Shown piece by piece: positions 24,009-33,016 of a DNA stretch of 64,000 nt. Position 1 is the stretch's first letter, and every line of letters starts with the position of its first letter. The DNA is taken from the NCBI GenBank assembly GCA_022824225.1, contig JAJEAH010000034.1, positions 44,260-108,259 on the forward strand, in the 5' to 3' direction. The notes beneath the pieces are model-generated. The model made no database searches, was not told where the DNA came from, and worked only from the letters and a program-made list of their open reading frames with translations. This DNA is from Chloroflexota bacterium (GTDB lineage Bacteria; Chloroflexota; UBA11872; VXOZ01). Both the position numbers and the translations under genes were made by a program.

Positions 24009-24338
24009 GTGAAGACGCCCGAAGAGTGCCAGGACATGCAGGACATTCGCGCGGCAATCGACAGCATCGACCGTGAAGTCATTGCCTTGCTGGGCCGGCG
24101 CTTCGCGTATGTGCGGGCCGCGTCGAAGTTCAAGACGAGCGCAACCGCGGTGCGGGCGCCGGAGCGCTTTCGGGCAATGCTCGAACAGCGCCGAGCCTGG
24201 GCCCAAGCGGCGGGACTCGACCCCGATGTCATCGCAAACGTGTACCGCGACCTGGTGAACTACTTCATCGCGGAGGAAATGCGGCAGTGGGAATCCAATG
24301 AACATCGGCAGAGCGCCCCAAGCAGCGCCCACGAATAG
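24009..24338 (+). CDS. PchB-like isochorismate-pyruvate lyase / AroQ-type chorismate mutase
   Basis: 109 residues from GTG 24009 with GAGAGGAAAA upstream. It is collinear with the PchB family (about 101 residues), opening MKTPEECQDMQDIRAAID. The residues I recall as the PchB active site are at the same numbers: Arg14, Arg31 and Lys42 (YVRAASKFK). The fourth, Gln90 in PchB, is Glu90 here (IAEEMRQW). PchB splits isochorismate to salicylate and pyruvate; AroQ mutases turn chorismate into prephenate with the same fold. No isochorismate synthase or siderophore genes are in the window, while DAHP and EPSP synthase are, so chorismate mutase activity is a real alternative. Confidence 0.85.
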   Translation: MKTPEECQDMQDIRAAIDSIDREVIALLGRRFAYVRAASKFKTSATAVRAPERFRAMLEQRRAWAQAAGLDPDVIANVYRDLVNYFIAEEMRQWESNEHRQSAPSSAHE

Positions 24339-27996: not shown

Positions 27997-28140
27997 GCGC
28001 ATTGACCTTTTGGCTGCACGAGGCCCTTTGGGGGAGAATACAAGCCTGCCGCGTTGCATGGTTCACAGAGAATTCACACTTTGGGGCTAGCATAGCGGCG
28101 AGGCATTCGCCGTATATGGGGAGGAGTGTCAGCACGGTTC

Positions 28141-28770
28141 ATGAAGGCTCATTTGCTGGTGTGTCTCGCCGGCCTTGCCATGTTTGCTTCCTGCGCGTCC
28201 CAAACTGAGATTCAGTCCGAAGTGACCACCACACCTGCGGCACAACCAACGGAAGCGACTTCTCCCACAGCGCGGCCGTCGCCTACGGCGCAGCCGTCGC
28301 CTACGCAACACGCTGTACCAACGCCGTCCGCCGAAAGTCTCATCATGCTGCAAGACCCCCTCGACGAGCCGGAGTTCTACTGTGTGGACGTAGCTGGCTT
28401 TGGGAGCAGTCTCAACCTGGACGCCCCGCTCCAAGCCCATACGTGCAAGCCCGGCGCGGACGATGAGCTTTTCACCTACAATCATCCCGGTCCGGGCCAG
28501 TTCTCCATGGACGCCTACGACGTCTGTTTGGAAGCGGGTGAGGGCGTGCTCTACGTGAGAGCCTGTTCGGATTCGCCAAAGCAGCGGTTTGCGCTGAGCA
28601 GCGATGGCACACTGCGCCTGCAAGACTCCGATCTCTGCGTGGCTGTGCAATCCGGTGAAGGTCAGCCCGCGGGCGGCAGATCGCACGTGCGCCGGGACCT
28701 CTTGTTACAGAGCTGCTCAGACGTTGAGGAGAACCTGTCCCGCTGGGTACTGCCGGGTCCTCGCCCCTGA
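28141..28770 (+). CDS. Secreted lipoprotein with ricin-like (beta-trefoil-like) domain
   Basis: 209 residues from ATG 28141. Short lipoprotein signal ending FASC with Cys18, then a Pro/Thr-rich linker with PSPTAQPSPT repeats (about residues 25-65). The rest is cysteine-containing (YCVDVAGFGSS, HTCKPGADDELF, VCLEAGEGVLYVRAC, LCVAVQSGEGQ, LLLQSC), in the spaced pattern of ricin-type lectin repeats where each subdomain has C, a QxF/W-like position and a closing C. Likely a surface carbohydrate-binding lipoprotein; binding is inferred from pattern only. GGAGGAG is at 28118-28124. Confidence 0.65.
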   Translation: MKAHLLVCLAGLAMFASCASQTEIQSEVTTTPAAQPTEATSPTARPSPTAQPSPTQHAVPTPSAESLIMLQDPLDEPEFYCVDVAGFGSSLNLDAPLQAHTCKPGADDELFTYNHPGPGQFSMDAYDVCLEAGEGVLYVRACSDSPKQRFALSSDGTLRLQDSDLCVAVQSGEGQPAGGRSHVRRDLLLQSCSDVEENLSRWVLPGPRP

Positions 28771-29733: not shown

Positions 29734-29763
29734 TTGACAGATCAGACGATCTCCTGTTACTAT
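29734..29763 (+). promoter_or_regulatory. Promoter of the aromatic (DAHP synthase) operon
   Basis: TTGACA (29734-29739), then TACTAT (29758-29763) after 18 bases. This is the best consensus promoter in the window. Transcription would start near 29770, leaving a leader of about 327 nt. Confidence 0.75.
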
Positions 29764-29835
29764 CCTCATCGTACTTTGCAAGAAGAGGGAATACGGGTGT
29801 CAGTCCTAGCTCGCAATTACTATTATCTGTTTATG

Positions 29836-29951
29836 AAGCCGGAGGGTCCGGCTTAAGCAGATGTGTGTTGTCCGAATGGACAACGAACGCGAAAGCAGAC
29901 AACCCCCTCCGGCGCTAGCAGAAAGTGAAAAAGCTTTCTGCTTTTTCTTTT
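29836..29951 (+). promoter_or_regulatory. Structured attenuator-like leader of the DAHP synthase operon
   Basis: Three stacked hairpins: P1 AAGCCGGA/TCCGGCTT (29836-29854), P2 GTTGTCC/GGACAAC (29867-29884), and the terminator at 29917. There are exclusive alternatives. GCCGGAGGG (29838-29846) pairs perfectly with CCCTCCGGC (29905-29913), opening P1; GTTGTC (29867-29872) can also pair with GACAAC (29898-29903), opening P2. No T-box or other known riboswitch motif is recognised. Confidence 0.65.
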
Positions 29952-29959
29952 ATAGATAG
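29861..29959 (+). CDS. Possible leader peptide, 32 residues
   Basis: ATG 29861 opens a 32-codon frame that passes through hairpin P2 and the terminator and stops at 29957-29959. It ends KAFCFFFYR, so it has four Phe codons and one Tyr codon just before the stop, as expected of an aromatic-amino-acid leader. However, most of these Phe codons are the terminator's U-run, so their number is not independent evidence. GGAGGG (29841-29846) lies 15 bases upstream, is buried in P1, and is far for a ribosome site. Confidence 0.3.
   Translation: MCVVRMDNERESRQPPPALAESEKAFCFFFYR
29917..29951 (+). terminator. Intrinsic terminator in the DAHP synthase leader
   Basis: A 9-bp stem AGCAGAAAG/CTTTCTGCT (29917-29925 with 29934-29942) is followed by TTTTTCTTTT. 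It lies about 145 bases before the start codon and no gene ends upstream of it on this strand, so it most likely acts as an attenuator. Confidence 0.75.
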
Positions 29960-30096
29960 GAGCGAATGCCACCGACAAACCGATTGAGCGAGCATCTACG
30001 CCAGCCGAGTTGGCGCAACTATTGGACAACCGACACAGCCTAGCGCACGAGAGGCACAACGGGCAAGCCAAAGAAAGGTTCAGAAGGTAAAGGAAC

Positions 30097-31181: not shown

Positions 31182-31730
31182 GTGGACGCTTGGGTGCACA
31201 TGATTGCGGAGGATGAGGCGGAGGGCCAGTTGCGCGCTGCCTACCAGGAACTGCTGGGCAAACGTTCGCGCGGCACGGTGCCAGACTTTCTCCGCCTGCA
31301 TAGTTTGGCGCCCCAGGCCGTCGTGCCCCTGGCGCAATTGCATCGCGCCATAGCCTACGGGCCCGGCGAACTGACTCGCGTGCAGCGCGAACTGATCGCG
31401 ACGGTCGTTTCCGCCATCAACGGCTGTGCGCTCTGTCTGGAGTTGCATAGCCGCCTACTCTTGCACCGCACCCGGGACGAAGAGCTCGTGACGCAGGTCG
31501 CGAGCGACTTTCGCAGCGCGCCGCTGCCGGCCGCCGAGCGCGCGCTGCTGGACTACGCCGCCCTACTCACCACCGCGCCCAGGGACGTTACCCAAGCCAA
31601 TATCGGTCGGCTGCGCCGGCTCGGCTTCTGCGACGCCGCTATCGTCGAAGCCGCGTCGCAGACGGCCCTCTTCAACTATCTCAACCGCATGATCCTGGGT
31701 CTCGGACTAGGAGAATCCACCGCGCCGTGA
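31182..31730 (+). CDS. AhpD-like / carboxymuconolactone-decarboxylase-family protein
   Basis: 182 residues; start GTG 31182 (ATG 31200 is an alternative). All-helical AhpD fold with the peroxidatic motif in AINGCALCLELHSRLL: the CxxC pair followed by His three residues later, as in 'peroxidase-related' AhpD proteins that pass electrons in alkyl-hydroperoxide defence. It sits between DAHP synthase and EPSP synthase; its stop overlaps the aroA start (GTGA), so it is part of the operon although it has no known shikimate role. It could protect the oxidation-sensitive metal Cys of DAHP synthase (speculative). Confidence 0.85.
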   Translation: MDAWVHMIAEDEAEGQLRAAYQELLGKRSRGTVPDFLRLHSLAPQAVVPLAQLHRAIAYGPGELTRVQRELIATVVSAINGCALCLELHSRLLLHRTRDEELVTQVASDFRSAPLPAAERALLDYAALLTTAPRDVTQANIGRLRRLGFCDAAIVEAASQTALFNYLNRMILGLGLGESTAP

Positions 31731-33016
31731 AGCGAATTGAGCCTATCGCTCACCCCGTAAACGCCACTGTTACCTTACCGGGATCCAAGAGCTACACCAA
31801 TCGGGCGCTCATCCTTGCGGCCTTAGCCGACGGTACCTCAACGCTGCGGCATGCCCTCTTCAGCGATGACACGATCTACATGGCCCAGGCCCTCGGAGCG
31901 TTGGGCATCCCCGTGACCGCCGACGCATCGGCCAGTACGTTCGTGGTGGAGGGCATGGGCGGCGCAATTCCCGCCGCGCAGGCGGACCTCTTCGTGGGTA
32001 ACTCGGGAACGAGCGCCCGTTTTCTCACCGCCCTCGTAGCCCTGGGCCACGGCCTTTACTCGATTGACGGCGTGGCCCGCATGCGCGAGCGGCCCATAGC
32101 CCCCTTGCTCGCCAGCCTGCGGCAACTAGGCGCCGCAGTTACATCCCGCGGCACGCGCGACTGCTTGCCTCTAGAGATTGACGGCTGCGGCCTGCGCGGC
32201 GGCGCGGCGCAGATGGCCGGCGACCAGAGCAGCCAGTATTTTAGCGCTCTCCTCATGGCCGCGCCGTACATGCGGGACGGGCTCGACCTGAGCGTCAACG
32301 GCCGCCTGGTGCACGGGCAGTACGTCGTCATGACCATGAAGAGCATGGCGGATTTCGGTGTTGCGGCCGTGAGCGAGGAATACCAACGCTTCCGCGTGGC
32401 GCCAGGCCAGCGGTACCAAGCGCGCGCGTACGACGTGGAGCCCGACGCCTCCGCCGCGTCGTACTTCTTTGCCGCCGCGGCCCTGACCGGCGGGACGGTG
32501 CGTGTTGAGAACCTGGGGGCCGATTCCGCGCAAGGCGACTTGGACTTCGTTGACGTGTTGGCGGCAATGGGCTGCACGGTGGAGAAAGCCGCGGACTACG
32601 TGAGCGTAAGCGGCCCCCGCACGCTGCGCGGCGTGGAAGTGGACATGGGCGCGCTTTCCGATACCTTCATGACCCTGGCGGCGCTGGCGCCGTTCGCCGC
32701 AGGCCCCACCACCATCCGGGGCATCGCCCATACGCGCCTGCAAGAGACCGACCGGGTGAGCGCCACCGCGCGGGAACTACGCAAGCTGGGTGTTACGGTC
32801 GAGGAATTCGAGGACGGACTCCGCATCCAGCCCGGCGCGCTGCGGCCTGCCGTCATCGACCCTCACGACGACCACCGCATCGCCATGAGCTTTGCGTTAG
32901 TTGGCCTCCGCCAGCCGGGCGTCGCTATCGACAATCCCGGCTGCGTCGCCAAGACGTTTCCCGATTTCTTCGCGCGTCTGGCCGCGGCGACAGCTCCCGC
33001 CGCTTCTCCCGCATGA
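31727..33016 (+). CDS. aroA: 3-phosphoshikimate 1-carboxyvinyltransferase (EPSP synthase)
   Basis: 429 residues from GTG 31727, overlapping the preceding stop. The enzyme adds enolpyruvyl to shikimate 3-phosphate. Motifs: LPGSKSYTNRALILAALADG, GNSGTSARFLTALVAL (the PEP-binding loop, normally GNAGT), RERPIAPLLASLRQLG, DQSSQYFSALLMAAP, SDTFMTLAALAPFA, RLQETDRVSA, and the C-terminal DPHDDHRIAMSFAL. The loop has Ser in GNSGT rather than Ala, and YTNR rather than SNR, so class (glyphosate-sensitive I or tolerant II) cannot be fixed by eye. Last gene of the aromatic operon. Confidence 0.96.
   Translation: MKRIEPIAHPVNATVTLPGSKSYTNRALILAALADGTSTLRHALFSDDTIYMAQALGALGIPVTADASASTFVVEGMGGAIPAAQADLFVGNSGTSARFLTALVALGHGLYSIDGVARMRERPIAPLLASLRQLGAAVTSRGTRDCLPLEIDGCGLRGGAAQMAGDQSSQYFSALLMAAPYMRDGLDLSVNGRLVHGQYVVMTMKSMADFGVAAVSEEYQRFRVAPGQRYQARAYDVEPDASAASYFFAAAALTGGTVRVENLGADSAQGDLDFVDVLAAMGCTVEKAADYVSVSGPRTLRGVEVDMGALSDTFMTLAALAPFAAGPTTIRGIAHTRLQETDRVSATARELRKLGVTVEEFEDGLRIQPGALRPAVIDPHDDHRIAMSFALVGLRQPGVAIDNPGCVAKTFPDFFARLAAATAPAASPA

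What the first reader, a model, noticed from the sequence alone, without database searches (positions are those of the whole stretch)
29734..30096. Uncharacterised attenuator-like leader of the aromatic operon
Seen: TTGACA-18-TACTAT promoter, roughly 330-nt leader, hairpins P1 and P2, and a 9-bp stem followed by TTTTTCTTTT about 145 bases before the DAHP synthase start, with no gene upstream that would need a terminator there. P1's left arm (29838-29846) has a second perfect 9-bp partner at 29905-29913, and P2's left arm has a second partner at 29898-29903, so exclusive folds exist. Known: shikimate operons are controlled by attenuation, T-boxes or riboswitches in various bacteria. Inference: a ligand or ribosome shifts the folds and decides read-through. 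I recognise no known class.
Basis: partly seen in the sequence, partly recalled or inferred. Interest (0 to 1): 0.75.

Follow-up and report, generated by a model that had tools for sequence, protein, structure and literature searches.

The report
Bridge-helix attenuator of aromatic synthesis operon
In front of the first gene of aromatic amino-acid synthesis this Chloroflexota bacterium carries a tiny Tyr/Phe-rich reading frame, a terminator and a potential helix that ends almost flush with that terminator; a ribosome starved of Tyr or Phe would likely stall there and let the pathway be transcribed, by a layout that lacks the hairpin overlap of textbook attenuators.

Summary
I examined 90 of 116 DAHP-synthase loci in Chloroflexota; 50 have a terminator by my scan, and 48 of these share one architecture (10 of 25 families, 26 genera): aromatic codons, then a GC-rich segment that can pair with a segment ending -1 to 4 nt from the terminator stem (dinucleotide shuffles 0.7%). 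In the window: 29838-29846 with 29905-29913, 3 nt from the terminator at 29917. Unlike the trp type, this starvation helix does not overlap the terminator, whose arms show no excess complementarity to the leader and which is predicted to fold in all eight ribosome states tested. I infer that the helix brings the stalled ribosome from about 60-95 nt to about 10-25 nt from the terminator and blocks its hairpin sterically. No Rfam match; the genome's trpE has a T-box. Leader-peptide control of DAHP synthase is known in Corynebacterium (aroR); the flush, non-overlapping layout is the new variant. The steric step is untested.

The parts
29734..29763 (+). sigma-70-like promoter TTGACA-18-TACTAT
   Evidence: TTGACA and a -10 box in all six genus members
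29783..29789 (+). Shine-Dalgarno-like AAGAGGG, 7 nt before the GTG
   Evidence: sequence; a purine-rich AGG box at this place in all six
29797..29856 (+). leader reading frame, GTG start, VSVLARNYYYLFMKPEGPA stop (19 codons)
   Evidence: 6 of 6 genus members; 8 of 10 amino-acid-invariant codons from Tyr1 on are codon-invariant against 61 of 251 in DAHP synthase
29818..29832 (+). regulatory codons Tyr-Tyr-Tyr-Leu-Phe
29825..29862 (+). P1 and its outer stem (29825-29833 with 29854-29862; 29837-29843 with 29847-29853): predicted without a ribosome, ties up segment 2
29838..29846 (+). segment 2 (GCCGGAGGG), 5' strand of the bridge helix, inside the reading frame
29866..29885 (+). hairpin P2 (29866-29873 with 29878-29885), enclosed by the bridge helix; weak in G001
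29905..29913 (+). segment 3 (CCCTCCGGC), 3' strand of the bridge helix, 3 nt before the terminator
29917..29951 (+). intrinsic terminator: stem 29917-29926 with 29933-29942, then TTTTCTTTT
   Evidence: the only match to its pattern in the genome
30097..31146 (+). DAHP synthase (NF006421, TIGR01361; ferredoxin-like domain PF18152), first gene behind the leader
31182..31730 (+). peroxidase-related AhpD/CMD-domain protein, second gene
31727..33016 (+). aroA, EPSP synthase (TIGR01356), third gene

Best explanation
The leader 29763-30096 contains a 19-codon reading frame with Tyr-Tyr-Tyr-Leu-Phe, a terminator and a 9-bp helix that could form 3 nt before it, and it likely works as a ribosome-mediated attenuator that lets RNA polymerase through when charged tRNA-Tyr or tRNA-Phe is short. 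Shown from sequence: the frame, the terminator, both pairings of segment 2, and their conservation. Predicted by folding: with the 5' part of the leader free, P1 mostly holds segment 2 in this genus. A ribosome on the Tyr codons opens the outer P1 stem, and segment 2 (29838-29846) switches to segment 3 (29905-29913), forming the bridge helix; a ribosome that has reached the stop codon covers segment 2, and the bridge helix cannot form. Inferred: the bridge helix does not compete with the terminator for bases. It brings the stalled ribosome from 96 nt to about 20 nt (counted from the first Tyr codon) before the terminator stem and sets a duplex almost flush with its 5' base, so that helix and ribosome keep the hairpin from completing in the RNA exit channel of the polymerase, and aroF-ahpD-aroA are transcribed. 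With Tyr and Phe plentiful the terminator would fold freely and transcription would stop.
For: Leader frame in 6 of 6 genus members; codon constraint p = 3e-4. Fold sweep: bridge helix at 0.83 or more in 6 of 6 when the first free base is 10-24 nt after the start of Tyr1, 0 from +28. Phylum: 50 of 90 examined loci have a terminator by my scan; 49 of 50 have a helix ending -1 to 4 nt from it, 48 of 50 also the aromatic codons, against 20% and 0.7% in 1000 dinucleotide shuffles. Searched without any adjacency rule, the best helix ends -5 to 0 nt from the terminator's first base in 47 of 48; shuffled leaders give 30%, and 5% with a score of 20 or more, which 45 real ones reach. As a contrast, none of 28 correctly placed trpE- or ilvB-type loci with a terminator shows this. 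First aromatic codon to segment 2: median 19 nt, IQR 17-20. Bridge helix P > 0.5 in 48 of 48 with the ribosome edge 12 nt into the aromatic run, 44 of 48 if RNA behind the ribosome may pair, 0 of 48 with a ribosome at the stop codon and the RNA behind it left out. Terminator arms show no mean excess complementarity to the leader (10.85 against 11.76, 12.12 against 11.89) or to all upstream RNA. Through the helix the first aromatic codon lies 9-26 nt from the terminator in 48 of 48, linearly 61-96. In E. coli a ribosome at a stop codon closer than about 27-30 nt represses terminator tR2, and pyrBI behaves alike (PMC4824070, abstract and passages). In C. glutamicum the aroR leader peptide (Phe-Tyr-Phe) raises transcription of the aroF operon under Phe limitation (PMC11802643, passages).
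Against: Equilibrium folding gives the terminator in all eight states in 48 of 48, so antitermination rests on an untested steric step. In 36 of 48 the bridge helix is predicted even with no ribosome; if the helix alone blocked the terminator, those leaders would be open by default. With RNA behind a ribosome at the stop codon allowed to pair, it forms in 20 of 48 (14 of them families f3 and f4), and 20 of 48 have the stop codon only 22-27 nt from the terminator (19 of them f3 and f4), where that ribosome might itself interfere; in this genus the distance is 55-60 nt. With only the footprint on codon 1 blocked, three of six genus members do not form the bridge helix (0.00-0.05). Inside the genus the arms are invariant and covariation is no better than shuffles (206 of 500 as good). 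Single exceptions to 'no overlap': L025 and L038 share one base, L073's best helix shares four; the terminator's 3' arm has excess complementarity in L005. Of 12 loci titled as Chloroflexota or its classes in the named scan only one passes, and 15 of 25 families examined have no passing locus. No RNA or reporter data.
Confidence: 0.7

Rival explanations
1. Classical four-segment attenuator: in this genus the bridge helix is extended by pairing of the Tyr-Leu-Phe codons (29826-29831, UCUGUU) with the terminator's 5' arm (29917-29922, AGCAGA), which would destroy the terminator in the ordinary way.
For: The minimum-energy fold of 29818-29951 contains this extension, and it is favoured in the window's own leader when the first free base is between -6 and +8 of Tyr1 (0.65-0.78, terminator 0.18-0.31). 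UAU-CUG-UUU and AGCAGAAAG are invariant in all six genomes.
Against: A ribosome stalled on Tyr codons covers part or all of UCUGUU; from +10 on the terminator wins. In the other five genus members the extension is at most 0.10 probable. Across 48 leaders terminator arms are on average no more complementary to the leader than shuffles.
Confidence: 0.12
2. The bridge helix alone, without any ribosome beside it, blocks the terminator; the ribosome's only role is to cover segment 2 at the stop codon when aromatic amino acids are plentiful (default ON).
For: In 36 of 48 leaders the helix is predicted without a ribosome; the geometry is flush. Blocking the RNA exit channel is a known way to stop a terminator hairpin, by phage protein P7 (PMC6624301, passages).
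Against: In this genus the no-ribosome fold is mostly P1 plus terminator, i.e. OFF. The first aromatic codon keeps a narrow distance to segment 2 (IQR 17-20 nt), as if ribosome position mattered.
Confidence: 0.2
3. The terminator is constitutive and the upstream pairing is a neutral or stabilising RNA structure; the small frames are not regulatory.
For: The terminator is predicted to form in all states tested.
Against: Aromatic codons before segment 2 in 48 of 50 leaders against 0.7% in shuffles; a constitutive terminator in front of a biosynthetic operon would switch it off.
Confidence: 0.04
4. A metabolite-binding riboswitch or a T-box controls the operon.
For: The same genome has a T-box before a trpE-type gene (L174, 103.5 bits), so T-boxes are in use in this lineage.
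Against: No Rfam match in the window leader: none at gathering threshold, and only two chance-level matches (E 0.53 and 3.9, eukaryotic U6 and plasmid ctRNA) at the relaxed one. In 20 relatives' loci the only matches are two tRNAs and an SRP RNA piece away from the leader.
Confidence: 0.03

Closest known systems
aroR leader peptide of the aroF operon in Corynebacterium glutamicum (PMC11802643, passages; PMC4046766, passages; original paper Neshat 2014 seen only in a reference list)
   Same: Leader peptide with Phe-Tyr-Phe before a DAHP synthase gene; transcription is raised by ribosome stalling under Phe limitation.
   Different: Actinobacterium; responds to Phe, not Tyr. Its RNA folds were not in the passages I saw, so I could not compare the helix-terminator geometry.
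Ribosome-mediated attenuators of trp, his, pheA, ilv and leu operons (four-segment model; one passage of PMC1183508: regions II:III and III:IV are mutually exclusive)
   Same: Leader peptide with regulatory codons, segment 2 beginning about 17-20 nt after the first regulatory codon (E. coli trp spacing recalled, not from a call), intrinsic terminator before the first gene.
   Different: The starvation helix 2:3 shares no bases with the terminator in the window; it ends 3 nt before it (-1 to 4 nt in 48 leaders).
C. glutamicum ilvBNC attenuator (PMC11857589, passages)
   Same: Leader peptide attenuator in which the bases of antiterminator and terminator hairpins are adjacent.
   Different: There the two hairpins overlap at a GCC trinucleotide and compete for it; here most leaders have no overlap and the terminator arms have no mean excess complementarity.
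E. coli pyrBI attenuator and tR2 placed near a stop codon (PMC4824070, abstract and passages)
   Same: A ribosome close to the terminator keeps the hairpin from folding, with no antiterminator.
   Different: Here the ribosome would stall 61-96 nt upstream and be brought near by a helix; the cue is charged aromatic tRNA, not UTP (pyrBI cue recalled).
uORFC-13-1 motif of Acholeplasma aroF (PMC8632094, section 26 read)
   Same: A small frame with at least one Phe codon before aroF, immediately upstream of an intrinsic terminator.
   Different: Reported only in Acholeplasma and environmental sequences, 24 representatives; I did not compare sequences with it, and no Rfam family matched here.
T-box leaders of trpE- and ilvB-type genes in the same genomes (Rfam RF00230)
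   Same: Terminator-based sensing of amino acid supply.
   Different: Sense uncharged tRNA directly, no leader peptide; found in 10 of 18 such loci scanned (5 of 11 trpE-type, 5 of 7 ilvB-type), and at none of the window plus 40 DAHP-synthase loci scanned.

Membership tests
Ribosome-mediated transcription attenuator (general) | short frame with codons for the pathway's product, before the first gene | tested here: met
   29797-29856, YYYLF; 6 of 6 genus members, 48 of 50 terminator-bearing leaders. Translation itself not shown.
Ribosome-mediated transcription attenuator (general) | intrinsic terminator between frame and first gene | tested here: met
   29917-29951
Ribosome-mediated transcription attenuator (general) | ribosome position switches alternative folds | tested here: met
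   by prediction only: P1 to bridge helix in 6 of 6; helix on at the aromatic codons and off at the stop codon in 48 of 48 with 5' RNA left out, but 20 of 48 still on at the stop codon if it may pair
Ribosome-mediated transcription attenuator (general) | starvation for the amino acid raises read-through | not testable with these tools
   needs reporter or RNA data
Classical four-segment attenuator (trp type) | antiterminator 2:3 overlaps terminator 3:4, the two being mutually exclusive | tested here: not met
   an extension into the terminator arm is favoured in the window's own leader for some ribosome positions
T-box | Rfam RF00230 match | tested here: not met
   the model does ring before a trpE-type gene of the same genome
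Known riboswitch or Rfam cis-regulator | match to one of 4227 models at gathering score | tested here: not met
uORFC-13-1 | match to its published consensus | not tested
   consensus is in a figure, not held; no Rfam family matched
C. glutamicum aroR type | same leader geometry as aroR | not tested
   aroR sequence and fold not fetched

The most novel reading that the evidence does not exclude
A class of attenuators spread over 26 genera of Chloroflexota in which no antiterminator competes with the terminator: a helix acts as a bridge that carries the stalled ribosome across some 45-80 nt to the foot of the terminator and blocks it by position alone, in several genera on leader frames that would start at the transcript's first bases.
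Probability: 0.4. Interest if true: 0.8.

Novelty: new variant of a known kind. Interest (0 to 1): 0.6.

Why it matters
A 2010 survey knew leader-peptide attenuation only from Proteobacteria and Actinobacteria, plus its own Firmicutes hisS case (PMC2965389, passages); here it stands before the entry gene of the shikimate pathway in 10 of 25 Chloroflexota families examined, beside T-boxes at trpE and ilvB in the same lineages. Adjacency without overlap separates two things that the textbook model confounds: whether an antiterminator must unpair the terminator, or whether placing a helix and a ribosome at its foot is enough. The spacing makes that directly testable.

Tried and rejected
Riboswitch or T-box: no Rfam match. 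P2's alternative partner 29898-29903: perfect in the window only. Extension of the bridge helix into the terminator arm (UCUGUU:AGCAGA) as the general antiterminator: favoured only in the window's own leader, no mean excess elsewhere. A second small frame after the terminator (29966-30043): no start codon in G005 and G001. Covariation inside the genus: uninformative. The named genome scan brought mostly other phyla: of its 80 loci two passed the helix screen at score 18 or more; one is L136, which contains L034, the other (L128, Peptococcaceae) has no aromatic run of the required kind. Eleven of its 12 loci titled as Chloroflexota or its classes did not pass. trpE- and ilvB-type loci as a second home of the device: no best helix ended -5 to 0 nt from the terminator in 28 loci with a terminator, and 10 of 18 scanned have T-boxes. 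Pair-type counts are biased, because the arms were chosen as complementary; I rely on the shuffles.

Own errors mended on the way: minus-strand loci read in the wrong orientation; redone in 27; pair registers wrong for two columns; redone in 20 and 30; terminator helix one column off; redone in 71; L173, L202 and L226 misplaced because their contigs end early; set aside. On checking I found the C. glutamicum aroR precedent and lowered interest from 0.64 to 0.6.

Literature: nine searches (listings capped) and one search showed no description of a Chloroflexota DAHP-synthase attenuator; subscription papers are not held. Lopatovskaya and others 2010, seen only in a reference list, could contain one.

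Full report
OBSERVATION. The genes behind it are the DAHP synthase gene, an AhpD-like gene and aroA. Rfam has no match here at gathering score, and only two chance-level ones at a relaxed threshold.

GENUS. Five further genomes of the genus carry the gene and all five carry the frame: 6 of 6 with YYYLF, two variable residues and PEGPA-stop. From Tyr1 on, 8 of 10 codons with an invariant amino acid are invariant as codons, against 61 of 251 in the DAHP synthase gene (binomial p = 3e-4), so the RNA is constrained beyond the peptide. The bridge helix and the terminator stem are invariant in sequence, P1 nearly so; P2 changes, with one two-sided change, and overall covariation is no better than shuffles. 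A sweep of the first free base shows the switch in 6 of 6: with the 5' part free, segment 2 is mostly in P1; with a ribosome on the Tyr codons (first free base +10 to +24) it pairs with segment 3; with a ribosome past +28 it pairs with neither.

PHYLUM. L034, from a genome of the window's class (G019), lies within L136, titled 'Chloroflexi bacterium isolate jk18x22bins.70', so the window is Chloroflexota. I examined 90 of the 116 DAHP-synthase places that one search listed in 89 of 101 genomes. My scan found an intrinsic terminator in 50 and none in 40. Of the 50, 49 have a helix ending -1 to 4 nt from the terminator stem, and 48 also have at least three aromatic codons just before its 5' strand in a frame that closes nearby; 1000 dinucleotide shuffles give 20% and 0.7%. 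The 48 come from 10 families and 26 genera; by my count the 90 loci cover 25 families. In the window's class 34 of 41 loci pass; of the other seven, L014 and L020 look alike by eye with two wobble pairs, L046 has a mismatched terminator stem, and four are further copies without a terminator by the scan. In other classes 14 of 49 pass. The peptides differ in sequence (WYYYFSRPV, FYFFSTPV, RYTFAFMRPARLGVHAM, YYWFYRGIT, FYFYRNPA and so on), and so do the helices. In the named scan one of 12 Chloroflexota-titled loci passes.

THE ODD FEATURE. In the classical design the starvation helix takes bases from the terminator. Here, a search with no adjacency rule puts the end of the best helix within -5 to 0 nt of the terminator's first base in 47 of 48 (25 of 26 genera). 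Two of these share one base with the stem; the exception, L073, shares four. Shuffled leaders give 30%, or 5% with a score of 20 or more, which 45 of the 48 real ones reach. The terminator's arms are on average no more complementary to the leader or to all upstream RNA than shuffled ones, with one outlier, L005. Folding gives the terminator in all eight states in 48 of 48. So the fold that marks starvation sits beside the terminator and mostly does not pair with it. Terminators at trpE- and ilvB-type loci of 20 of these genomes show no such neighbour in 28 of 28.

MECHANISM. Measured from the first aromatic codon, the terminator lies 61-96 nt away along the RNA and 9-26 nt away through the helix (median 17; 20 in the window); the stop codon lies 22-60 nt away (60 in the window). 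In E. coli a ribosome at a stop codon closer than about 27-30 nt represses terminator tR2, with maximal termination beyond, and pyrBI shows a steeper version of the same (PMC4824070, abstract and passages). Phage protein P7 shows that keeping the hairpin out of the RNA exit channel suffices for antitermination (PMC6624301, passages). I therefore infer that the helix is a bridge which brings the stalled ribosome to the terminator, and that ribosome and duplex block the hairpin. Read-through on starvation is assumed from the logic of a biosynthetic operon and from the aroR precedent; it is not shown here. I put the attenuator as such near 0.95 and the bridge step near 0.5; the 0.7 covers the whole statement.

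AGAINST. Folding alone does not explain antitermination. In 36 of 48 leaders the bridge helix is predicted without a ribosome, and in 20 of 48 also around a ribosome at the stop codon; the latter and the short stop-to-terminator distances (20 of 48 at 27 nt or less) are mostly in families f3 and f4, where termination by plenty needs a further step such as ribosome release and a local hairpin. When only the footprint on codon 1 is blocked and the 5' RNA may pair, 44 of 48 form the helix, but three of six genus members do not. In the window's own leader a true overlap (UCUGUU with AGCAGA) is favoured for some ribosome positions.

KNOWN RELATIVES. In C. glutamicum the leader peptide AroR (Phe-Tyr-Phe) precedes the aroF operon, and stalling under Phe limitation raises transcription (PMC11802643, passages; prediction in PMC4046766, passages): leader-peptide control of DAHP synthase is thus known. 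The C. glutamicum ilvBNC attenuator has adjacent hairpins that share three bases (PMC11857589, passages). Acholeplasma aroF has a Phe-coding frame right before a terminator (uORFC-13-1, PMC8632094 section 26). A 2010 survey knew leader-peptide attenuation only from Proteobacteria, Actinobacteria and its own Firmicutes hisS case (PMC2965389, passages). T-boxes lie at 10 of the 18 trpE- or ilvB-type loci that I scanned, the window genome's trpE-type gene among them. I file the leader as a new variant of ribosome-mediated attenuation, not as a member of the four-segment type.

Noticed in passing
upstream of DAHP synthase in L008, L010-L013, L019, L022, L025, L039, L041, L043, L048, L050, L056, L057, L071-L073, L085: 19 of 48 leaders (11 of 26 genera) have a promoter-like TTG-type -35, a 17- or 18-nt spacer and a -10 box (xAxxxT) ending 5-10 nt, mostly 8-10, before an in-frame start codon of the leader frame, with no SD by my pattern (control rate 2%): the leader peptide would be translated from a leaderless transcript.
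   Followed up: partly
L174 804-1106 (own genome, before a trpE-type gene); also L178, L179, L181, L183, L205, L208, L212, L214, L219: T-box leaders at trpE- or ilvB-type genes in the window genome and relatives, while DAHP synthase has a leader frame. The window genome's ilvB-type locus L209 has no match.
   Followed up: partly
L046, about 75 nt before the gene: Aromatic leader and segments 2 and 3 look intact, but the terminator's 3' arm no longer matches its 5' arm: a natural variant worth reading out.
   Followed up: no
L029 and L044: The 15-bp bridge helix is itself followed by a run of T before the main terminator, as if two terminators stood in series.
   Followed up: no
29966-30043: Short frame with AGGAG just before it, after the terminator; AGGAGC is kept in all six genus members but the start codon is not. 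An inverted repeat GCCAx..xTGGC lies within.
   Followed up: partly
24009-24338 (+): Chorismate-mutase-family protein, above the cut-off for isochorismate lyase (NF005475), about 6 kb upstream of the operon.
   Followed up: no
31182-31730 (+): A peroxidase-related AhpD/CMD gene sits between the DAHP synthase gene and aroA and overlaps aroA by 4 nt; its role in a shikimate operon is unclear.
   Followed up: no
28126-28770 (+): Protein with a ricin-B-type lectin domain (PF00652); by eye its start looks like a lipoprotein signal.
   Followed up: no
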